A DNA stretch of 64,000 nucleotides from assembly GCA_958295525.1 (NCBI GenBank), contig OY282355.1:1029504-1093503 (forward strand). Direction: 5' to 3'. Positions 31,139 to 41,051 of this stretch are shown one piece after another. The position numbers were made by a program, and so were the translations under genes. Under the pieces are notes generated by a model that saw only the letters and a list, made by a program, of their open reading frames with translations, had not been told where the DNA came from and searched no databases. Origin of the DNA: an uncultured Dehalococcoidia bacterium. Lineage in GTDB: Bacteria; Chloroflexota; Dehalococcoidia; Lucifugimonadales; Australimonadaceae. Position 1 is the stretch's first letter; each line of letters opens with the position of its first letter.

Positions 31139-31572
31139 ATGGGGCAAGGGGCGAGGTTCCCGCCTGCGCGGGAACGACGGGGCAAGGGGGGCGAGGTTCC
31201 CGCCTGCGCGGGAACGACGGGGCAAGGGGGGCGAGGTTCCCGCCTGCGCGGGAACGACGGGGCAAGGGGCGAGGTTCCCGCCTGCGCGGGAACGACGGGG
31301 CAAGGGGGGCGAGGTTCCCGCCTCGCGGGAACGACGCAGGGCAAGGGGCGAGATTCCCGCATGCGCGGGAACGATGGGGCAAAGGGGCGAGGTTTCCGCC
31401 TGCGCGGGAACGACGCAGGGCAAGGGGCGAGATTCCCGCATGCGCGGGAACGACGGGGCAAGGGGCGAGATTCCCGCATGCGCGGGAACGTCGGGGCAAG
31501 GGGCGGGGTTCCCGCCTGCGCGGGAACGACGGGGCAAGGGGCGAGGTTCCCGCCTCGCGGGAACGACGGGGG
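31139..31572. repeat. Tandem array of palindromic repeats, about 40-bp period
   Basis: About eleven palindromes in a head-to-tail array with a regular unit of about 39-42 bp. Most read TTCCCGCCTGCGCGGGAA; three read CATGCG in the centre and two have shortened loops. Spacers are nearly identical G-rich sequence (CGACGGGGCAAGGGG), so this is a tandem repeat and not a CRISPR. A TATAAC box follows at about 31597. Confidence 0.9.
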
Positions 31573-31637
31573 GCGGCAGGCTCCAGTTTGCGGTACTATA
31601 ACGCCGCCATTCCCACGCGCCGGAGGAACCGAACCCG

Positions 31638-33165: not shown

Positions 33166-34413
33166 CTACCCCGGAAACATCCCCACGATCTCGCCTATCG
33201 CCGGGTTGTACCGCTGATGGCCGTGATAGATCATCCGCGCCTGATTGCGGTCGGGCGTGTAGTACACCTTCTCCTGCGTCATCTCCAGGCATTCGTTCGA
33301 CGCCGGATCCCGGAACACGTTCATCGGATCGCCGCCGTCCGCCACCGTCGCCATCGCTTCGTTCAGCATCCGGCGCAGTTGAATCACGCCCACGTCCGAC
33401 TCCCCAAGCCGCTCCCGCGTCCTGTCGGCCACCGGCCCTTGCGTGACCCACGCCATAAAGTCCTGCGGCAGCGGCACCTCCACGTTCAACTCTCCGTTCC
33501 GGTAGAGCGGAATCTCGTAGTACGGAACGCGCTCCTGCGGCGGAACCTCCGCCTCCGGCGGAAACTGATAGCGCGTGTACACCACGTGCAGCGTGTGCTC
33601 GTCGTCCACCGGCACGCGATACTGAAACTCCGTGCTCGTCGTGCCGGTCGTCGAGCGCAGAATGTTCGGAAACACCCACGGATGCCCAACCTTCCAAATG
33701 TCGTCGTCCTCGCTCGTCCCCTCCACAACGCGGCGCTTGAAAACCCCGTGCGCGAACTCGGTGAATCCGATGCGCTTGTGCGGACGCATCATCGCCTTCC
33801 GCCACGGCGGAACCTCCTCGCCCGACCGCTGCGCCAGCCACCAGCCGTACACGCCGTGCAGCCACTCCGCGTGCACCGGATCCGCCGAGTTCTCCTGACA
33901 CTGCAGCCAGTTGCAAGGCAGCATCGTAAAGCCGATGTCCCGCCAGGCGTGCTCTGTGACGAACAAGTCCCAGCGCGGCGTGAGGGGCGCCGGCGACGGG
34001 CCCAGGTACGCGAACAGCAGCCCGCCCAGTTCCTCGACGGGGTAGCCCGCGATTTTCACTTTCTCCTTGAACCGCCCGTCCGGGCGCACCGTCTCCTCGA
34101 ACGGTTGCTCGACGCACTGCCCCGTCTCGTCCATCATCCAGCCGTGATACATACAGCGCAGCCCGCGCTCCTCCGGGATCCCGTAGGAGAGGTCGACGCG
34201 CCGGTGCGGACAGAACCGCTCGATCAGGCCCAGCGTGCCGGACTTGTCCTTGTAGAGCACGAGGTCCTCGCCGAGCAGCCGCACCGCTTTCGTGGGGCGG
34301 TCGTCGAGTTCCGCCGCCGCGGCGACGGGATGCCAGTAGCGGCGCATCAACTCGCCCATCGGCGTCCCCGGCCCGACCTGCGTAAGCCGTTCGTTCTCCT
34401 CTTGCGTCAGCAT
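33166..34413 (-). CDS. Rieske-type aromatic ring-hydroxylating oxygenase, alpha subunit-like, copy 2
   Basis: A 415-residue paralogue of the gene at 23144. The Rieske centre CPH plus CMYHGW and the iron-site stretch ENSADPVHAEWLH are intact. The first 160 residues are almost identical to copy 1, while the catalytic domain from about residue 185 diverges strongly, suggesting the same electron donor but a different substrate. AGGAGG precedes the ATG. It is divergent from the ParB/SNF2 operon with only 113 bases between start codons. Confidence 0.9.
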   Translation of the reverse strand: MLTQEENERLTQVGPGTPMGELMRRYWHPVAAAAELDDRPTKAVRLLGEDLVLYKDKSGTLGLIERFCPHRRVDLSYGIPEERGLRCMYHGWMMDETGQCVEQPFEETVRPDGRFKEKVKIAGYPVEELGGLLFAYLGPSPAPLTPRWDLFVTEHAWRDIGFTMLPCNWLQCQENSADPVHAEWLHGVYGWWLAQRSGEEVPPWRKAMMRPHKRIGFTEFAHGVFKRRVVEGTSEDDDIWKVGHPWVFPNILRSTTGTTSTEFQYRVPVDDEHTLHVVYTRYQFPPEAEVPPQERVPYYEIPLYRNGELNVEVPLPQDFMAWVTQGPVADRTRERLGESDVGVIQLRRMLNEAMATVADGGDPMNVFRDPASNECLEMTQEKVYYTPDRNQARMIYHGHQRYNPAIGEIVGMFPG

Positions 34414-34475
34414 CGCGCGCCTCCTGTGTGGGCGAGGATATGGGCAATGGTAGCGGATTTGGGGGGGAGGGGAGG

Positions 34476-34504
34476 TTGACGGATAGCCCGACCTCCGGTA
34501 TATG
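34476..34504 (+). promoter_or_regulatory. sigma70-like promoter of the ParB/SNF2/radical SAM operon
   Basis: TTGACG at 34476-34481 and TATATG at 34499-34504 are spaced by 17 bases. Transcription would start near 34511, just before the GGAGG ribosome site of the first gene. Confidence 0.6.
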
Positions 34505-34526
34505 TAAGATAGAGGAGGGTTGCACG

Positions 34527-35525
34527 ATGCGCTTTGACATGCTGCCAGTGGCGGACTTGGAACTTGATGTCTCCAATCCCAGAGTCGCTAGGGTCGTCGA
34601 GATGTACGGCGACGAGGTTACCTACGACCGCATGCGGTTGGCGCTGGGCGTATCCGCTAGCGACGACTCCAACAACGGCACGACCTTCTACAGCCTGCGG
34701 GAATCTATACGCACGAATGGGGGGATCATCCACCCCATCATCGTTAACGACCTCAGTGGCCGGATGGTCGTGATTGAGGGGAATACGCGAGCGATGATCT
34801 ACAAGGAATTCGTCGACTCTGACCTGGACGGCGACTGGAGCGTCATTCCCGCCGTCGTTCACCCGAACTTGGGGCAGGCGGAAATTGACGCGATTCGCTT
34901 GCAATCCCACCTCGTGGGCCCTCGGGAATGGGACCCTTACTCCAAGGCTAAGTACTTGGAGCACTTGAGGAATTCTCAGCACCTGACCTTCAGCCAGATC
35001 GTCGACTTTTGTGGAGGGCAACAACAAGAAGTTGCTCGCTACATTGATGCTTACAACGACATGGAGCGATATTATCGGCCTATCCTCGCAGATGACCACA
35101 GTTTTGACCATACTCGATTTAGCGCGTTTGTAGAATTGCAGCGAGGTCAAGTAGCCGAAGCCTTGTCGCAGGCTGGATTTTCGAAATCCGCCTTTGCCCA
35201 ATGGGTAGATGACAAGCGAGTGTACCCATTGAATCTCGTCCGCAGTTTGCCTCGGATACTCAGGAACCCCAAAGCTAAAGAGGTTTTCTTGACGGACGGA
35301 GCGCAGGAAGCAGTCAAAGCGCTAGATTCTCCTTTGCCTGAGGAATCGTTGAAGAGCGCGAGCCTGTCTCAATTGCTCAACGAAGTGAAGCGTCGGATAT
35401 GGGAAATGCCCTACGCCCAGTTGCGGCAACTTAAGGAGCAAGTTGGTTCAGCGGAGGGCGAGAGCATTGTAGAGACTCGCTATGCCTTGGACCAGCTGTG
35501 CCAAGACATAGCGTCCGACGAGTAA
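34527..35525 (+). CDS. ParB/Srx-like domain protein, operon gene 1
   Basis: A 332-residue protein. Residues about 5-115 form a ParB/sulfiredoxin-like domain: LPVADLELDVSNPR, SLRESIRTNGGIIHPIIVND and VIEGNTRAMIYKEF replace the usual ParB boxes, and DAIRLQSHLVGPREWDPYSKAKYLEHL resembles the segment leading to the helix-turn-helix. The C-terminal half is helical and unrecognised. ParB-fold proteins bind CTP or DNA, and some relatives are nucleases or kinases; the catalytic role here is unknown. AGGAGG supports the ATG at 34527. Base composition is distinctly more AT-rich than the flanks. Confidence 0.78.
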   Translation: MRFDMLPVADLELDVSNPRVARVVEMYGDEVTYDRMRLALGVSASDDSNNGTTFYSLRESIRTNGGIIHPIIVNDLSGRMVVIEGNTRAMIYKEFVDSDLDGDWSVIPAVVHPNLGQAEIDAIRLQSHLVGPREWDPYSKAKYLEHLRNSQHLTFSQIVDFCGGQQQEVARYIDAYNDMERYYRPILADDHSFDHTRFSAFVELQRGQVAEALSQAGFSKSAFAQWVDDKRVYPLNLVRSLPRILRNPKAKEVFLTDGAQEAVKALDSPLPEESLKSASLSQLLNEVKRRIWEMPYAQLRQLKEQVGSAEGESIVETRYALDQLCQDIASDE

Positions 35526-35531
35526 TGTCCT

Positions 35532-35942
35532 ATGCCGGAATCCCGTGCCCACATGAACCTTGTCAAGCATTTGCTGGACTACGTCGTCAGCGTATGGATG
35601 AATGGCGATAAAGGATTGGTTTTCCTAGACTCCCCGGATAGCCCTAGGCAGATGAAGCCCCCTTTGGTCAACGGCTTCACCCCCGACCTTTTTGCGCGTA
35701 ACGCTCACACGGGAGTCACTATCATAGGAGAAGCAAAGACGGCGCGTGACCTGCAAAGCCCGCATACGGAGAACCAGATCAGAGGTTTCCTAGCCAAATG
35801 CGTAGAAGAAACGCCATCAACCTTCGTGCTGGCCGTTCCTTGGGATATGGTGCGCCACGCACGTTGGATCTTGCGAATAATTCAAAAGGATGCTAGTGTG
35901 GCGGAAGCCCAAACCATCGTACTGGAGGAATTGGAAGGATAG
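35532..35942 (+). CDS. Small PD-(D/E)XK-like nuclease, operon gene 2
   Basis: A 136-residue protein with a probable PD-(D/E)XK core: FTPDLFARN supplies the PD, and IIGEAKTARDL supplies the E-x-K about 17 residues later. An ENQIRGFL helix follows, as in Holliday-junction-resolvase-like and restriction-type nucleases. It begins six bases after the first ParB-like gene and its stop is one base before the helicase start, so coupling is likely. Its size fits a stand-alone nuclease subunit that works with the adjacent helicase. Assignment rests on short motifs. Confidence 0.65.
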   Translation: MPESRAHMNLVKHLLDYVVSVWMNGDKGLVFLDSPDSPRQMKPPLVNGFTPDLFARNAHTGVTIIGEAKTARDLQSPHTENQIRGFLAKCVEETPSTFVLAVPWDMVRHARWILRIIQKDASVAEAQTIVLEELEG

Positions 35943-35943
35943 C

Positions 35944-37443
35944 ATGCAACGTCCGTCCTCAGCGCAGCGCTCTCTTCCTTTGCGCCTTGGCAGGGAACCT
36001 GTGGTTACGCCTAAGCTGGAGGCGTTCCCTTATCAGTTGGACGCGGTGGAGGCTATCAGAGACCTCGAGTACGCTGCTGTTTTCCACGAGCAAGGACTGG
36101 GGAAGACGAAGATCGCCATCGATGTCTTGTTGTATTGGCTTCGGACCAAGGTTATCGATACGGTGATGCTTGTCACCAAGAAGGGGCTAATTGCGAATTG
36201 GGAACGCGAGTTTGCCGTCCATGCCTATGTCAGGCCTCGCTTGCTGACCTTAAACGCAAAGGCGAACTACTACGTTTTCAACAGCCCTGTGAGGGTGATA
36301 TTGACTCATTTTGAGGCAATTCAGAAAGAAGAGAAGCGTATAGAAATCTTTTGCAGAACTCGTAAATTGGGCATAATTATAGATGAATCTGCGCGCCTAA
36401 AGAATCCTGATACAGGCTTAACTCAGTCTTTCATCCGTTTATCGGCCGGCTTCATACGCCGCATTATTATGACAGGAACCCCTGTCGCCAACAGGCCAGA
36501 AGACGTGTGGTCGCAAATATGCTTTCTCGACCATGGGGTGAGCCTTGGCGAAAACTTCAAGGAATTCCGCGCTCGAGTCCAGTTGCAAAAAGGCTTGGAG
36601 GGAAACGCTGAGGGACAGCAACGGTTTCAATATGAACTCGAGGACGTGCAGCAAAGAATCGCCCCTTTTTCTGTCAGAGAAACGAAAAACAGCGGAGTCA
36701 TTACTTTGCCAAATAAACTCATTCACGCAGTCCCAACCGAATGGGAGCGCATCCAGTTCGATATGTACCGACAAGTTCGGAATGACTTGAGAGCAGTTCT
36801 CATTAGAGACGGACAGCCCGTCGAAGAAAATGAAGAACCTGTGCTGAGGCGACTTGTCCGTTTGATTCAGATCGCTTCTAATCCGAGAATGTTGGACACT
36901 ACTTACGCGGGAGAACCCGGTAAAATGGCGGCATTGCAAGACATTCTGTACACTGCTCACGACCAAAACGAGAAGGCTATCGTATGGACGTCGTTCACGG
37001 ATAACGTTGACTGGCTCACACGTGAACTGCGAAATTTTGGAGCACGGCGCGTTCATGGCAAGCTTGGGATAGAAGCGCGGGAACGCTCCCTATCCGCATT
37101 TCTCACCGACTCTCGCGTCGAAGTGCTCGTTGCCACTCCCGCGTCAGCCAAAGAAGGCTTGACTCTAACCGTCGCCAACCACGTCATTTTCTACGACCGC
37201 ACCTTCAGCCTTGATGACTACTTGCAAGCCCAAGACCGTATCCACCGAATTTCCCAAGAGAAAATCTGCCACGTCCACAACTTAATTATGACCGACTCGA
37301 TTGACGAGTGGGTCGCCGTGCTCCTCGAGGCTAAGCACACGGCGGCTCAACTTGCCCAAGGCGATCTCTCCCCCCTTGACTTCCAGGCGAAGATGCGTTA
37401 TGACTTTGGACAGGTTCTTGCGGGAATCCTAGGAACAGGCTGA
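35944..37443 (+). CDS. SNF2-family DNA helicase/translocase, operon gene 3
   Basis: A 499-residue superfamily 2 ATPase with all Snf2 boxes. Motif I is HEQGLGKTKIA (about residues 45-55), motif II is IIIDESARLKN, motif III is MTGTPVANRPED, motif V is AKEGLTLTVAN and motif VI is QAQDRIHRISQ. There is no long insert, extra zinc finger or fused nuclease, so it is a compact single-module translocase. It probably moves along duplex DNA to deliver or activate its partners. The ATG at 35944 follows the nuclease stop directly; the longer frame from 35890 overlaps the nuclease gene. Confidence 0.92.
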   Translation: MQRPSSAQRSLPLRLGREPVVTPKLEAFPYQLDAVEAIRDLEYAAVFHEQGLGKTKIAIDVLLYWLRTKVIDTVMLVTKKGLIANWEREFAVHAYVRPRLLTLNAKANYYVFNSPVRVILTHFEAIQKEEKRIEIFCRTRKLGIIIDESARLKNPDTGLTQSFIRLSAGFIRRIIMTGTPVANRPEDVWSQICFLDHGVSLGENFKEFRARVQLQKGLEGNAEGQQRFQYELEDVQQRIAPFSVRETKNSGVITLPNKLIHAVPTEWERIQFDMYRQVRNDLRAVLIRDGQPVEENEEPVLRRLVRLIQIASNPRMLDTTYAGEPGKMAALQDILYTAHDQNEKAIVWTSFTDNVDWLTRELRNFGARRVHGKLGIEARERSLSAFLTDSRVEVLVATPASAKEGLTLTVANHVIFYDRTFSLDDYLQAQDRIHRISQEKICHVHNLIMTDSIDEWVAVLLEAKHTAAQLAQGDLSPLDFQAKMRYDFGQVLAGILGTG

Positions 37444-37457
37444 CAGAGGAGGGCCAG

Positions 37458-38450
37458 ATGCCGTTTGTGCAGGAAGGTGCAGAGAGCAGCATCCCGCTTA
37501 GGGGGGAACAGGTTCTCGTCCACCAAGGCGTCATGCCTCACAGCGACCTGCGGTTCTACGCCGACAACCCTCGGATCTACACGCTCGTTGGGCGCAATGA
37601 GTCAATTCCTTCCCAAGAGGAGATAGAGGCAACCCTGTGCGAGATGGACCACGTGAACGGGCTTATCCAGTCTATCCGCGCCCACGGAGGCTTGATTGAC
37701 CCCGTGCTGGTGAGAGACGGTGACTACGTGGTGCTTGAAGGGAACAGCCGCCTCGCTGCCTACCGAAAGCTGGCGCGTCTCGACCCGATCAGATGGGGTA
37801 GGATGCGCGTAACCTTGCTGCCAGCCGACATAAGGGATGACTTGGTGTTCGCATTGCTTGGACAATACCACCTCGTAGGCAAAAAGGATTGGCAGCCTTA
37901 CGAGCAGGCCGGATACTACTATCGGCGGCATATGGATCACAATGTTCCAATCACTACAATCGCCTCAGAGATGGCCATACCCAGCCAGAGAGTCCGACGT
38001 CTCATAGACACGTATGACTTCATGGTCAGACACAACGAATCCAGCATTGACCGCTGGAGTTATTATGAGGAGTACCTGAAGAACCCCGCCATTAAGCAGG
38101 CGAGACGTGACAATCCTACAATGGACGAAGTGGTGGTTCGGAAAATCCGCAGCGGAGAGATACCGCGTGCAATCGAAATCAGGGACAACTTGTCGGTTGT
38201 TGCCAAGTCGGGAGGAAGGGCACTGAATAAATTCTTGCGAGAAGAAAATTCGTTCGAAGAGGCCGTTGAAATGACCGCGGACCGCAGCGATTGGTACAAA
38301 AGAATCAATCGTTTCAAGAAACAGCTGGCAAGTTCTGAACAGGAATTGCGTAGCCTTTCTGACGAACAGCGTAAGAAGTGTGTCTATGAGTTGAGGCAAA
38401 TTCAGCGAATCCTCAACGGGATACTCCCTAAGATACAAGGCCCAGGATGA
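37458..38450 (+). CDS. Second ParB-like protein, operon gene 4
   Basis: A 330-residue protein distantly like operon gene 1. It has SIRAHGGLIDPVLVRDGDYVVLEGNSRLAAYRKL, with the ParB-type EGNSR loop, then LGQYHLVGKKDWQPYEQAGYY and a probable DNA-binding helix-turn-helix (ITTIASEMAIPSQRVRRLIDTY, about residues 155-178). The end is a basic helical region. GGAGG precedes the ATG. Its last four bases (ATGA) overlap the radical SAM gene. Two different ParB-like proteins in one operon are unusual for a partition locus, and no ParA ATPase is present. Confidence 0.8.
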   Translation: MPFVQEGAESSIPLRGEQVLVHQGVMPHSDLRFYADNPRIYTLVGRNESIPSQEEIEATLCEMDHVNGLIQSIRAHGGLIDPVLVRDGDYVVLEGNSRLAAYRKLARLDPIRWGRMRVTLLPADIRDDLVFALLGQYHLVGKKDWQPYEQAGYYYRRHMDHNVPITTIASEMAIPSQRVRRLIDTYDFMVRHNESSIDRWSYYEEYLKNPAIKQARRDNPTMDEVVVRKIRSGEIPRAIEIRDNLSVVAKSGGRALNKFLREENSFEEAVEMTADRSDWYKRINRFKKQLASSEQELRSLSDEQRKKCVYELRQIQRILNGILPKIQGPG

Positions 38451-39820
38451 AAATCCTTCTCGTCCAACCCGCTTACTACACGCGCTACCCGCCTTTGGGG
38501 TTGCTCAAATTGGCCGCCATGCACAAGAACAAGGGAGACGAAGTCCTCTTTGTGCGCGGCCTAGAGCATCCCGAATTGCGGCCTGACGTCGTCTACGTCA
38601 CAAGCCTCTTTACGTATGCGTGGAAGCACGTCCACAACACCGTGGCCTATTACAGAGCGCTCTACCCGGAGGCCAAGGTTGTGCTGGGCGGCATATACGC
38701 AACCCTGATGCCTGAGCACGCTAGGTTGTCAGGAGCGCACGAGGTTCACACGGGATTGGTAACCGAAGCCGAGGGCTACCGCCCCGACTACTCCCTTGTC
38801 CCCGAATGGGACTCCAGCATAATGTTTTCGATGCGGGGTTGCATCCGTAAGTGCGCTTTCTGTGCGGTTCCTCGACTCGAAGGCAAGACGAGTGGGAAGG
38901 CGCAAACAGTCCGTGACTTGATAGAGCCAGGTCACAAAAAGGCCATTCTATGGGATAACAACGTCTTGGGTGTTCCCAATTGGTCAGACGTGGTTGACGA
39001 ATTGAAGGATGCAGGCGTAAGCGTGGACTTTAATCAGGGATTAGACGCTCGCCTTATCACTGATGATATAGCACGAAAATTGCGCGAAATTCGGGTCAAT
39101 CCTATACGCCTTGCCTACGACATACCTAGCGAAAAACCTGCAGTGGAATCCGCGATAGAGTCACTGCATTCCGCAGGGTTCAGTCGGCGCAGAATTATTG
39201 TCTACACCTTGTATAATTTCACTGACACGCCGGAGCAGTTTTGGGGCCGAGTCACCGACCTTATCTCTTGGGGGTCAGTGTCGTACCCAATGCGCTACGA
39301 ACCTCTCAATTCCTTGACAAAAAACCGCTATGTTTCTCCGCATTGGACCGCCGAACAACTTGAGATGGTGGCCGCTGCCCGTCGTGTAATCGGGGCAGGA
39401 GGAGCCTTCCCTCCATACCAAGCACTCATAGACAAGATGACCCAGGCCAGCAGTTTCGAGGACGCGTTTAGCCTTCGAGGAACATCGCGGCGTACCAAGA
39501 TAGGAATTGCTGGAACCATTGAGGAACCCACCCCTAACCTGTCCCCGGAGCGCACATTGTTCCGTGACCTCTTCAATGACCCTGCTACGCTTCAGTCTGG
39601 TGTCCATTGCGCGGAGTGTGGGTCTTGCCTTGCAGTCAGCGATAGGGCTTTCGCCATACAGGACTATGCGGGGCGCTACGTTGCCTACCTTTGCCCAGAC
39701 TGCCATCCCAACAAGAAGTGGATCAACGGGCTGTGGCGTTCTACCCTGGGCGACGGGTTCACACTGAACGGAGAGGCAAGCCCACTGACGATCCCCGTGC
39801 TTGCCAGCACAGTCCATTAG
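38447..39820 (+). CDS. Radical SAM protein with B12-binding-like N-terminus and zinc ribbon, operon gene 5
   Basis: A 457-residue radical SAM enzyme. Residues 1-110 have the fold pattern of B12-binding radical SAM proteins (MKILLVQPAYY, PPLGLLKLAAM, VVLGGIYATLMPE), though the cobalamin DxHxxG motif is not evident. The 4Fe-4S motif is RGCIRKCAFCAVP (about residues 129-141). The C-terminal region has CAECGSC and YLCPDCH, a probable zinc ribbon that could bind nucleic acid. It is translationally coupled to the ParB-like gene. A role in modifying DNA, RNA or a protein is possible; the substrate cannot be read. Confidence 0.88.
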   Translation: MKILLVQPAYYTRYPPLGLLKLAAMHKNKGDEVLFVRGLEHPELRPDVVYVTSLFTYAWKHVHNTVAYYRALYPEAKVVLGGIYATLMPEHARLSGAHEVHTGLVTEAEGYRPDYSLVPEWDSSIMFSMRGCIRKCAFCAVPRLEGKTSGKAQTVRDLIEPGHKKAILWDNNVLGVPNWSDVVDELKDAGVSVDFNQGLDARLITDDIARKLREIRVNPIRLAYDIPSEKPAVESAIESLHSAGFSRRRIIVYTLYNFTDTPEQFWGRVTDLISWGSVSYPMRYEPLNSLTKNRYVSPHWTAEQLEMVAAARRVIGAGGAFPPYQALIDKMTQASSFEDAFSLRGTSRRTKIGIAGTIEEPTPNLSPERTLFRDLFNDPATLQSGVHCAECGSCLAVSDRAFAIQDYAGRYVAYLCPDCHPNKKWINGLWRSTLGDGFTLNGEASPLTIPVLASTVH

Positions 39821-39842
39821 GCTATGCCTCCCCCTCCCTCCC

Positions 39843-40051
39843 CTACCCCACGGCGCGAATCCGTTCCTCGCCTTGCCCGCCGCCCCGCCTGCTATCCTGA
39901 CTCCCAATGCGCCTCCGGCAACCGGCCTTAACGAACGAAATGAGCGCTTTTGAGCGCTTTATCCACGAAAACGCGCCCCATCGGAGTACAATAGCCCCCG
40001 GCGCGCGAGGGGTTGCGCCGGACGAGAGCGCGAGACGAGAGGAGACGCGAG
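39843..40051. other. Intergenic region with dispersed duplicate and TACAAT box
   Basis: Sequence 39848-39966 resembles 29306-29492 and ends with the same ATGAGCGCTTTTGAGCGC stretch (39940 on). A TACAAT at 39987-39992 probably drives the isochorismatase-family gene. No coding region is supported. Confidence 0.5.
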
Positions 40052-40753
40052 ATGGCGACCGACTACGGGTTCGAAGACCACTGCTGGCAAGACGTCGTGA
40101 GCCCCGAAGACTTGGAGTTGTACAAGCACTACGAGCGCGACCTCTACGTTGGGCGTCGCCCCGCGCTGCTGGCGATAGACCTCTACAACATGGCCTATCA
40201 GGGCGGCGCGCGCCCCGTCCACGAGGTGGCGAAGGAGTTCCCCAGCGCCTGCGGCGAGTACGCTTGGAACGCCATCGAGCCCACCAAGCAGTTGTTCGCA
40301 ATGGCGCGGGCGCGCGGCTTCCCCGTCGTCTACACCACCGGCGAGGACCGGACCGAGGCGCGCCCCAACCGCGTCCGCGCCACGAACCGCCGCCCCGCCA
40401 ACGGCGGCGAGGAGCCGTTCGGCATCTTCGAGGCGTTCGCCCCGCAGCCCGAAGACCTGATCATCTACAAGCAGCGCGCCAGCGGCTTCTACGGCACGCC
40501 GCTCGCCGCCCACCTCACGCAGGCCGGCGTCGACACGCTGCTCGTCTGCGGCGAAAGCGTCAGCGGATGCGTGCGCGCCTCCGTCGTCGACGCCTACTCC
40601 TGCGGCTTCCACGTCGTCGTCGCTGAGGAGTGCGTGTACGACCGCAGCCTCCTGTCGTGCAAGGTCAACCTCTTCGATATGCACCACAAGTACGCCGACG
40701 TGATGCGCCTCGGTCAACTCGCCGAGCACCTCGAAGCCTTCCCCGAAGCGTAA
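40052..40753 (+). CDS. Isochorismatase-family cysteine hydrolase
   Basis: A 233-residue hydrolase of the isochorismatase/N-carbamoylsarcosine amidase family. The catalytic triad is visible: Asp in LLAIDLYN (about residue 36), Lys in YKQRASGFYGT (about 140) and Cys in GESVSGCVRASV (about 173). The residues around the Cys fit amidases acting on small C-N bonds better than true isochorismatases. GAGGAGACGCGAG precedes the ATG at 40052, so the longer frame from 40013 is rejected. Substrate unknown. Confidence 0.87.
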   Translation: MATDYGFEDHCWQDVVSPEDLELYKHYERDLYVGRRPALLAIDLYNMAYQGGARPVHEVAKEFPSACGEYAWNAIEPTKQLFAMARARGFPVVYTTGEDRTEARPNRVRATNRRPANGGEEPFGIFEAFAPQPEDLIIYKQRASGFYGTPLAAHLTQAGVDTLLVCGESVSGCVRASVVDAYSCGFHVVVAEECVYDRSLLSCKVNLFDMHHKYADVMRLGQLAEHLEAFPEA

Positions 40754-40756
40754 GCC

Positions 40757-40990
40757 TGGATTCCCGCCTACGCGGGAATGGCGGGGCAGAGGGCGGGATG
40801 GCGATGAGGGCGAGGTTCCCGCCTACGCGGGAATGACGGGGCAAGGGGGCGGGATTCCCGCCTTCGCGGGAATGACGGGGCAAGGGGCGGGGTTCCCGCC
40901 TTCGCGGGAATGGCGGGGCAGAGGGCGGGAGTGACGATGAAGGGCGAGGTTCCCGCCTTCGCGGGAATGACGATGTGGGGCGCGCGGGAA
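40757..40990. repeat. Palindromic repeat array
   Basis: Six palindromes in one orientation, spaced by 35-50 bp; the loop alternates between CTACG and CTTCG types. No gene is supported. Confidence 0.87.
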
Positions 40991-41051
40991 TCCCGCCCCC
41001 CTCTGCCGTAGGGGAGAGCCGGCGCGCCCTTGACGCTACCCTCCTTCTTCG

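What the first reader, a model, noticed from the sequence alone, without database searches (positions are those of the whole stretch)
34527..39820. Five-gene ParB-like / PD-(D/E)XK / SNF2 / ParB-like / radical SAM operon, candidate undescribed system
Seen: five genes in one direction, with gaps of 1-15 bases or an ATGA overlap, under one sigma70-like promoter, visibly AT-richer than the flanks and inserted between ordinary metabolic genes. Known: SNF2 translocases and PD-(D/E)XK nucleases cooperate in restriction and DNA repair, ParB-fold proteins bind CTP/DNA or are nucleases, and radical SAM enzymes modify nucleic acids or proteins. Inference: a horizontally acquired module that marks, scans and cleaves or protects DNA. 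It lacks ParA, methyltransferase, TGT/DpdA, DndC or recombinase genes, so it is not a partition locus or a named modification system that I recognise.
Basis: partly seen in the sequence, partly recalled or inferred. Interest (0 to 1): 0.92.

Follow-up and report, generated by a model that had tools for sequence, protein, structure and literature searches.

The report
Restriction-like operon with radical SAM modifier
A five-gene island found in scattered members of at least a dozen bacterial phyla looks like an unnamed DNA-restriction system in which a radical SAM enzyme stands where a DNA methyltransferase would normally be, which would be a new way for bacteria to mark their own DNA.

Summary
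Five co-directional genes (34527-39820) form an AT-rich insert (GC 0.534 against 0.669) between a Rieske oxygenase gene and an isochorismatase gene that lie side by side in six relatives. The cassette ParB1 / PD-(D/E)XK / SNF2 / ParB2 recurs in the same order in 74 of 74 loci holding ParB1, SNF2 and ParB2, in at least 12 phyla, on plasmids and in prophages, but rarely (under 1% of sampled genomes). 67 of the 74 carry a radical SAM gene; four lack it and have a D12/Dam-type DNA adenine methyltransferase instead; none has both. The radical SAM gene is also exchangeable: the window's copy groups with lone phage copies, not with those of other Dehalococcoidia cassettes whose core genes are just as close. 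Relatives add DndB/DpdB-like (22) and Hsp90/MutL-like ATPase (38) genes. Best reading: a restriction-modification-like defence system, with ParB-fold clamps, SNF2 motor and nuclease as restriction arm and a B12-class radical SAM enzyme as exchangeable modification arm. Defence, DNA cleavage and the modified substrate are inferred, not shown. No named system in PADLOC, NCBIfam, Pfam or the searched literature matches.

The parts
34430..40036 (.). Approximate extent of the horizontally acquired insert (empty site in six relatives)
   Evidence: Left homology to relatives ends at about 34413-34430, right homology resumes at 40036-40064; no integrase or clear target duplication seen
34476..34504 (+). 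Putative promoter TTGACG-17-TATATG
   Evidence: read in the sequence; not listed by the consensus scan
34527..35525 (+). ParB1: ParB/Noc/KorB-like protein (N-terminal CTPase-like fold with EGNTR motif, helical DNA-binding part)
   Evidence: AlphaFold2 pLDDT 84; Foldseek to ParB, Noc, KorB; phrog_3694 3e-12; NPR and EGNTR 57/57
35532..35942 (+). Small PD-(D/E)XK nuclease (P51-D52 ... E67-A68-K69)
   Evidence: motif conserved D 57/57, E 57/57, K 56/57; alignment; only a weak Pfam hint, AHJR-like REase
35944..37443 (+). SNF2/SWI2 ATPase (GLGKT, DES/DEA, TGTP, QDRIHRISQ intact)
37458..38450 (+). ParB2: second ParB-like protein, distant paralogue of ParB1 (29.5% over 183 aa)
38447..39820 (+). Radical SAM enzyme with N-terminal B12-binding-like domain, CX3CX2C cluster at C132/C136/C139 and a C-terminal CxxC/CxxC (C388, C416) extension
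   Evidence: PF02310, phrog_9298 3e-68; Foldseek to AprD4, MgmA, MTAB, TokK; CX3CX2C 57/57

Best explanation
The operon is a mobile, restriction-modification-like defence system. Restriction arm: two ParB-fold proteins bind and probably clamp on DNA in a nucleotide-dependent way, the SNF2 motor moves along DNA, and the small PD-(D/E)XK protein cuts DNA that lacks the self mark. Modification arm: the radical SAM enzyme installs the protective mark, most likely a carbon-centred (methyl or methylthio-type) change on DNA, guided by ParB-like proteins; other lineages use a Dam-like adenine methyltransferase for the same slot. SHOWN by sequence: the gene set, intact catalytic motifs, conserved order, exchangeability of the radical SAM gene, replacement by DNA methyltransferases, insertion as an island. 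INFERRED: defence function, cleavage of DNA, that the radical SAM substrate is DNA, the chemistry of the mark.
For: Core order 74/74, PD detected 69/74, radical SAM 67/74, D12 methyltransferase 4/74, both 0/74 (Fisher p 3e-5, not corrected for relatedness). The D12 genomes (L058, L059, L062, L094) have no radical SAM of this family anywhere. In L058/L059 the cassette sits inside a DpnII-type operon: D12 and N6/N4 methyltransferase genes upstream, R.DpnII directly downstream; in L062 a D12 methyltransferase and a type II enzyme gene precede it; in L094 the D12 gene ends 12 bp before ParB1. Distance correlations among core genes 0.77-0.88, with radical SAM only 0.47-0.58. Radical SAM swap: the window's core is equally close to L039, L038 and L040 (ParB1 53-55%, SNF2 52-55%, ParB2 49-53%), its radical SAM is 61% to L039 but 26-27% to L038/L040 and clusters with phage copies. 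Relatives carry DndB/DpdB (PF14072 8e-8, DpdB 8e-19), a partner type of DNA phosphorothioation and 7-deazaguanine systems. In phages, lone copies sit beside ParB-like genes (16 of 74 loci; 2000 permutations mean 4.4, max 11) and more weakly beside C5-methyltransferase genes (6; mean 1.3, max 7). SNF2 is closest among defence proteins to ZorD and DpdE. Mobile: empty site, plasmids, prophage (L109).
Against: No functional data. Three of the four methyltransferase loci are related Bacilli in which the methyltransferase also serves a type II system, so its role for the cassette is ambiguous; only L094 lacks a visible second restriction enzyme. One complete locus (L091, SAR86) has neither enzyme. 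The structural neighbours of the radical SAM enzyme act on small molecules, proteins or RNA, not on DNA (own knowledge). The lone phage copies could have another role. Neighbourhoods show only scattered known defence genes, and no baseline was measured.
Confidence: 0.55

Rival explanations
1. The cassette is a defence module, but the radical SAM enzyme does not mark DNA: it modifies a cassette protein (for example ParB) or makes a small molecule or modified nucleotide, as viperins do.
For: Class relatives by fold are AprD4 (sugar), MgmA (protein), MTAB (tRNA) and TokK (small molecule). ParB-radical SAM gene pairs in phages would also fit ParB as substrate.
Against: Does not explain replacement by D12 DNA methyltransferases or the recurrent DndB/DpdB partner. 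No PADLOC model, viperin included, matched.
Confidence: 0.2
2. A DNA repair or anti-plasmid clearance system: ParB clamps and the SNF2 motor remodel damaged or foreign DNA, the nuclease processes it, and the radical SAM enzyme repairs or edits DNA (as spore photoproduct lyase does).
For: SNF2, nuclease and ParB clamps are also repair or segregation parts; an S24 (LexA/UmuD-like) peptidase gene accompanies the cassette in 13 loci, hinting at DNA-damage control.
Against: Patchy and mobile distribution, under 1% of sampled genomes; association with restriction-modification methyltransferases and an R.DpnII partner.
Confidence: 0.1
3. A type IV-like system in which the radical SAM enzyme or methyltransferase is not a self mark but a sensor or activator, and the cassette attacks modified phage DNA.
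For: GmrSD-type type IV enzymes also use a ParB/Srx-fold domain (PMC4619093). Phages carry lone copies of the radical SAM enzyme.
Against: A modification enzyme in the same operon is unneeded for type IV systems; tight radical SAM or methyltransferase association (71 of 74).
Confidence: 0.08
4. A selfish maintenance or phage-replication module without defence function (partition-like).
For: ParB proteins, plasmid and phage location.
Against: No ParA in the operon; chromosomal island in many lineages; nuclease and SNF2 catalytic motifs under strong constraint.
Confidence: 0.05

Closest known systems
Dpd (7-deazaguanine DNA modification-restriction)
   Same: SNF2 related to DpdE (7e-30); relatives of the system carry a DpdB-like DGQHR protein (8e-19); modification arm plus ATPase/nuclease arm
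   Different: No DpdA transglycosylase; radical SAM enzyme not of the QueE family; paired ParB proteins; small separate PD-(D/E)XK protein
Dnd/Ssp/Pbe phosphorothioation systems
   Same: ParB-fold DndB-like partner in 22 relatives; interchangeable modification and restriction arms
   Different: No DndA/C/D/E or SspB/C/D/E hits among the five genes
Type II DpnII-like restriction-modification
   Same: In L058/L059 the core cassette is embedded between DpnII-type methyltransferase genes and R.DpnII
   Different: The window has no methyltransferase and no DpnII; ParB and SNF2 parts are foreign to type II systems
Zorya (ZorD), DISARM (DrmD), BREX type 3 helicase
   Same: SNF2-type motor (ZorD 1e-39)
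   Different: No ZorA/ZorB, DrmA/B/C, PglZ or BrxC; the motor here is a lone 499-aa ATPase core
Chromosome or plasmid partition (ParABS), Noc, KorB
   Same: ParB1 predicted fold matches ParB, Noc and KorB
   Different: No ParA; two ParB paralogues in one operon with nuclease and SNF2; EGNTR in place of the canonical motif
B12-dependent radical SAM methyltransferases and related (MgmA, TokK, AprD4)
   Same: B12-binding-like domain plus radical SAM barrel, CX3CX2C
   Different: Only 13-15% identity; substrate unknown; no DxHxxG motif

Membership tests
Conserved ParB-PD-SNF2-ParB plus modifier system (proposed here) | ParB1, PD-(D/E)XK, SNF2, ParB2 contiguous in this order on one strand | tested here: met
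   74/74 order, PD detected in 69/74
Conserved ParB-PD-SNF2-ParB plus modifier system (proposed here) | One modification-type enzyme: radical SAM or D12 methyltransferase, not both | tested here: met
   67 radical SAM, 4 D12, 0 both, 3 neither, of which two break at a contig end
Restriction-modification systems | DNA methyltransferase in the operon | tested here: not met
   none in the window operon; met in L058, L059, L062, L094
Restriction-modification systems | Restriction nuclease with DNA-dependent ATPase | tested here: inconclusive
   PD-(D/E)XK and SNF2 motifs intact; cleavage not testable here
Restriction-modification systems | Modification protects DNA from the nuclease | not testable with these tools
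   needs biochemistry
Dpd | DpdA tRNA-guanine transglycosylase-like enzyme | tested here: not met
   no hit among the five genes
Dnd/Ssp/Pbe | DndC/SspD PP-loop enzyme and cysteine desulfurase | tested here: not met
   no hit among the five genes
Dnd/Dpd | DndB/DpdB (DGQHR) protein | tested here: not met
   absent from the window operon; present in 22 of 74 relatives
Zorya | ZorA/ZorB motor proteins | tested here: not met
   no hits among the five genes
ParABS partition | ParA ATPase with ParB | tested here: not met
   no ParA among the five genes
ParB/Srx superfamily | ParB/Srx fold with [DE]G[NQ]xR-type motif | tested here: met
   Foldseek to ParB, Noc, KorB, Srx for ParB1; motif 57/57
ParB CTPase clamps | CTP binding and DNA sliding | not testable with these tools
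   fold only
Radical SAM superfamily | CX3CX2C [4Fe-4S] motif in a radical SAM fold | tested here: met
Cobalamin-dependent radical SAM methyltransferases | functional B12 binding | tested here: inconclusive
   PF02310 over its cut-off, fold matches, but no DxHxxG in the sequence
Prokaryotic viperins | viperin-type radical SAM profile | tested here: not met
   0 PADLOC families for the radical SAM protein

The most novel reading that the evidence does not exclude
A widespread defence system whose self mark is written on DNA by a B12-class radical SAM enzyme, a base modification chemistry not known in restriction-modification, paired with a ParB-clamp/SNF2/PD-(D/E)XK restriction engine that accepts interchangeable modifiers (radical SAM or Dam-type), and which phages evade by carrying lone copies of the modifier.
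Probability: 0.4. Interest if true: 0.93.

Novelty: new variant of a known kind. Interest (0 to 1): 0.8.

Why it matters
Restriction-modification marks known so far are mostly methylation, phosphorothioation or base replacement. A radical SAM enzyme in the modifier slot, exchangeable with DNA methyltransferases, predicts an undiscovered DNA modification and gives a directly testable candidate. The hundreds of lone phage copies would then be candidate anti-restriction enzymes. ParB clamps in a restriction engine would also extend the CTP-switch family to defence.

Tried and rejected
Known-system match in PADLOC, NCBIfam, Pfam and PHROGs: none fits. Viral scan with the single radical SAM protein: nothing confirmed, only the alignment query worked. 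Phage tblastn with ParB1, ParB2 and PD: one weak hit or none. Distant ParB hits in other Chloroflexota (L110-L114, L116, L117) are ParB-like genes without the cassette; two lie beside a weak D12 hit, not pursued. Integrase or target duplication at the insert: none found. The missing radical SAM in L043 and L064 is best explained by contig breaks: each cassette reaches a contig end, and L064's genome has the gene in pieces on other contigs. Paper searches found no description, but subscription journals and bioRxiv are mostly not held, so prior description cannot be excluded.
Full report
Observation. They are an outlier in composition (0.534 against 0.669; minimum of 482 other windows 0.607). 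In six relatives (G001, G002, G003, G005, G014, G015) the flanking Rieske and isochorismatase genes face away from each other with 77-711 bp between them; here 5.6 kb lies between them. Homology to relatives ends at about 34430 and resumes at about 40036. The simplest reading is that the island was inserted in this lineage. The genome is a single 2.5-Mb contig; the named close relatives are Dehalococcoidia.

Proteins. Gene 1 (ParB1): AlphaFold2 pLDDT 84, best Foldseek matches ParB bound to CDP/CTP, Noc, KorB, then sulfiredoxin. Gene 4 (ParB2) is a distant paralogue (29.5% over 183 aa). Both keep NPR and EGN[TS]R; the DGQHR and DGQQR motifs of DndB and GmrS belong to the same superfamily (PMC4619093), and I take them to be equivalent. 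Gene 2: PD-x-EAK nuclease core, D and E invariant and K in 56 of 57. Gene 3: SNF2 ATPase with all motifs, closest in PADLOC to ZorD and DpdE. Gene 5: B12-binding-like radical SAM enzyme, modelled at pLDDT above 80, mostly above 90, over its first 310 residues, nearest folds AprD4, MgmA, MTAB and TokK; its C-terminal 110 residues (CxxC...CxxC) are poorly modelled.

Survey. One scan of 84,980 species genomes with ParB1 gave 66 loci, and one of viral contigs gave 7; plasmid hits came from tblastn. Scored with family profiles, 74 loci hold ParB1, SNF2 and ParB2: all 74 in the same order and strand, PD found in 69. A few are near-duplicates (L071/L106, L073/L099). Phyla include Chloroflexota, Planctomycetota, Pseudomonadota, Bacillota, Bacteroidota, Nitrospirota, Acidobacteriota, Myxococcota, Thermodesulfobacteriota, Spirochaetota, Fibrobacterota, Binatota and Patescibacteria. 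The system is rare: strong matches in 2 of 400 Chloroflexota genomes, 1 of 296 genomes of the class of one Bacilli carrier, 1 of 380 of the phylum of the Daviesbacteria carrier.

The modifier slot. 67 of 74 loci carry a radical SAM gene next to the cassette: downstream (as here), upstream (L039, Bacteroidales, Lachnospiraceae), or on the opposite strand; every copy that spans the motif region has CX3CX2C. Four loci lack it and all four have a D12 adenine methyltransferase on the same strand upstream; those genomes have no radical SAM of this family at all. No locus has both. L058/L059 are DpnII-type operons with the cassette between methyltransferase genes and R.DpnII. Counting related Bacilli as one, this is two independent replacements; the Fisher value of 3e-5 overstates the evidence.

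Exchange. Pairwise distances of the four core proteins agree (r 0.77-0.88) but much less with the radical SAM (0.47-0.58). Among Dehalococcoidia the window core is as close to L038/L040 as to L039, but its radical SAM is 61% identical to L039's and 26-27% to the others. The radical SAM tree (quick method, some long branches) mixes lone phage copies with module copies, at least six label changes being forced, and puts the window beside phage copies including Marinitoga camini virus 1. Some phage-contig copies travel with the GHKL ATPase and other genes, such as a NERD-helicase in L170, and pNL1 has DndB-like, radical SAM and GHKL genes with PIN and GHKL genes but no ParB cassette. So radical SAM (with GHKL, with DndB-like) behaves as one exchangeable arm, and ParB-PD-SNF2-ParB as another.

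Phage side. Of 80 fetched, 74 had no cassette. The immediate neighbour is a ParB-like gene in 16 loci (permutation mean 4.4, maximum 11 of 2000) and a C5 DNA methyltransferase in 6 (mean 1.3, maximum 7). This links the enzyme to ParB-like proteins, and less firmly to DNA modification, outside the cassette too. That phages use it to evade the cassette is inference.

Mechanism and confidence. The simplest account is a restriction-modification-like system with an unusual modifier (0.55). Main weaknesses: no experiment, no direct proof that DNA is the radical SAM substrate, few independent methyltransferase replacements, and one complete locus without either enzyme (L091). I file it under no named family, since every named system tested lacks a defining component. 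The novelty grade reflects the inferred working principle (restriction-modification), which is known; the component set is not.

Limits. The survey query was ParB1, so cassettes without a recognisable ParB1 are undercounted; ORF calling in scripts was simple; the PADLOC copy is from 2023; the literature library lacks most subscription journals and bioRxiv.

Noticed in passing
L058 8361-14757, L059 4535-11548: DpnII-type operon (D12 and N6/N4 methyltransferases, R.DpnII) with the ParB-PD-SNF2-ParB cassette embedded inside it.
   Followed up: partly
L066, L068, L076, L078-L082, L085, L086, L088, L089, L108: An S24 (LexA/UmuD-like) peptidase-family gene near or directly downstream of ParB2 in the divergent-radical SAM subtype.
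   Followed up: partly
L170 6356-11478; L161 4801-9386; L018 3120-11119: Radical SAM plus Hsp90/MutL-like ATPase pair associated with other genes: NERD-helicase, an unknown 546-aa protein, PIN plus GHKL.
   Followed up: partly
L037 4300-5553, L092 14761-16035: Metallo-beta-lactamase-fold protein (seen in L037) next to the DndB-like gene; the L092 neighbour looks related.
   Followed up: no
L109: The cassette with radical SAM and GHKL genes sits after what look like tail and lysis genes of a prophage, as cargo genes often do.
   Followed up: no
L096, L100 (Candidatus Brocadia): Possible remnant cassette: ParB1-like gene, a 283-aa gene and a broken or partial radical SAM gene, without SNF2.
   Followed up: no
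window 31139-31600: Dense short palindrome-like repeats read through as repetitive GNDGARG/ACAGTT peptides; similar peptides recur near 40700-41000.
   Followed up: no
G000 whole genome: 38 matches of the Rieske oxygenase family next to the island, a large paralogue expansion also seen in relatives.
   Followed up: no
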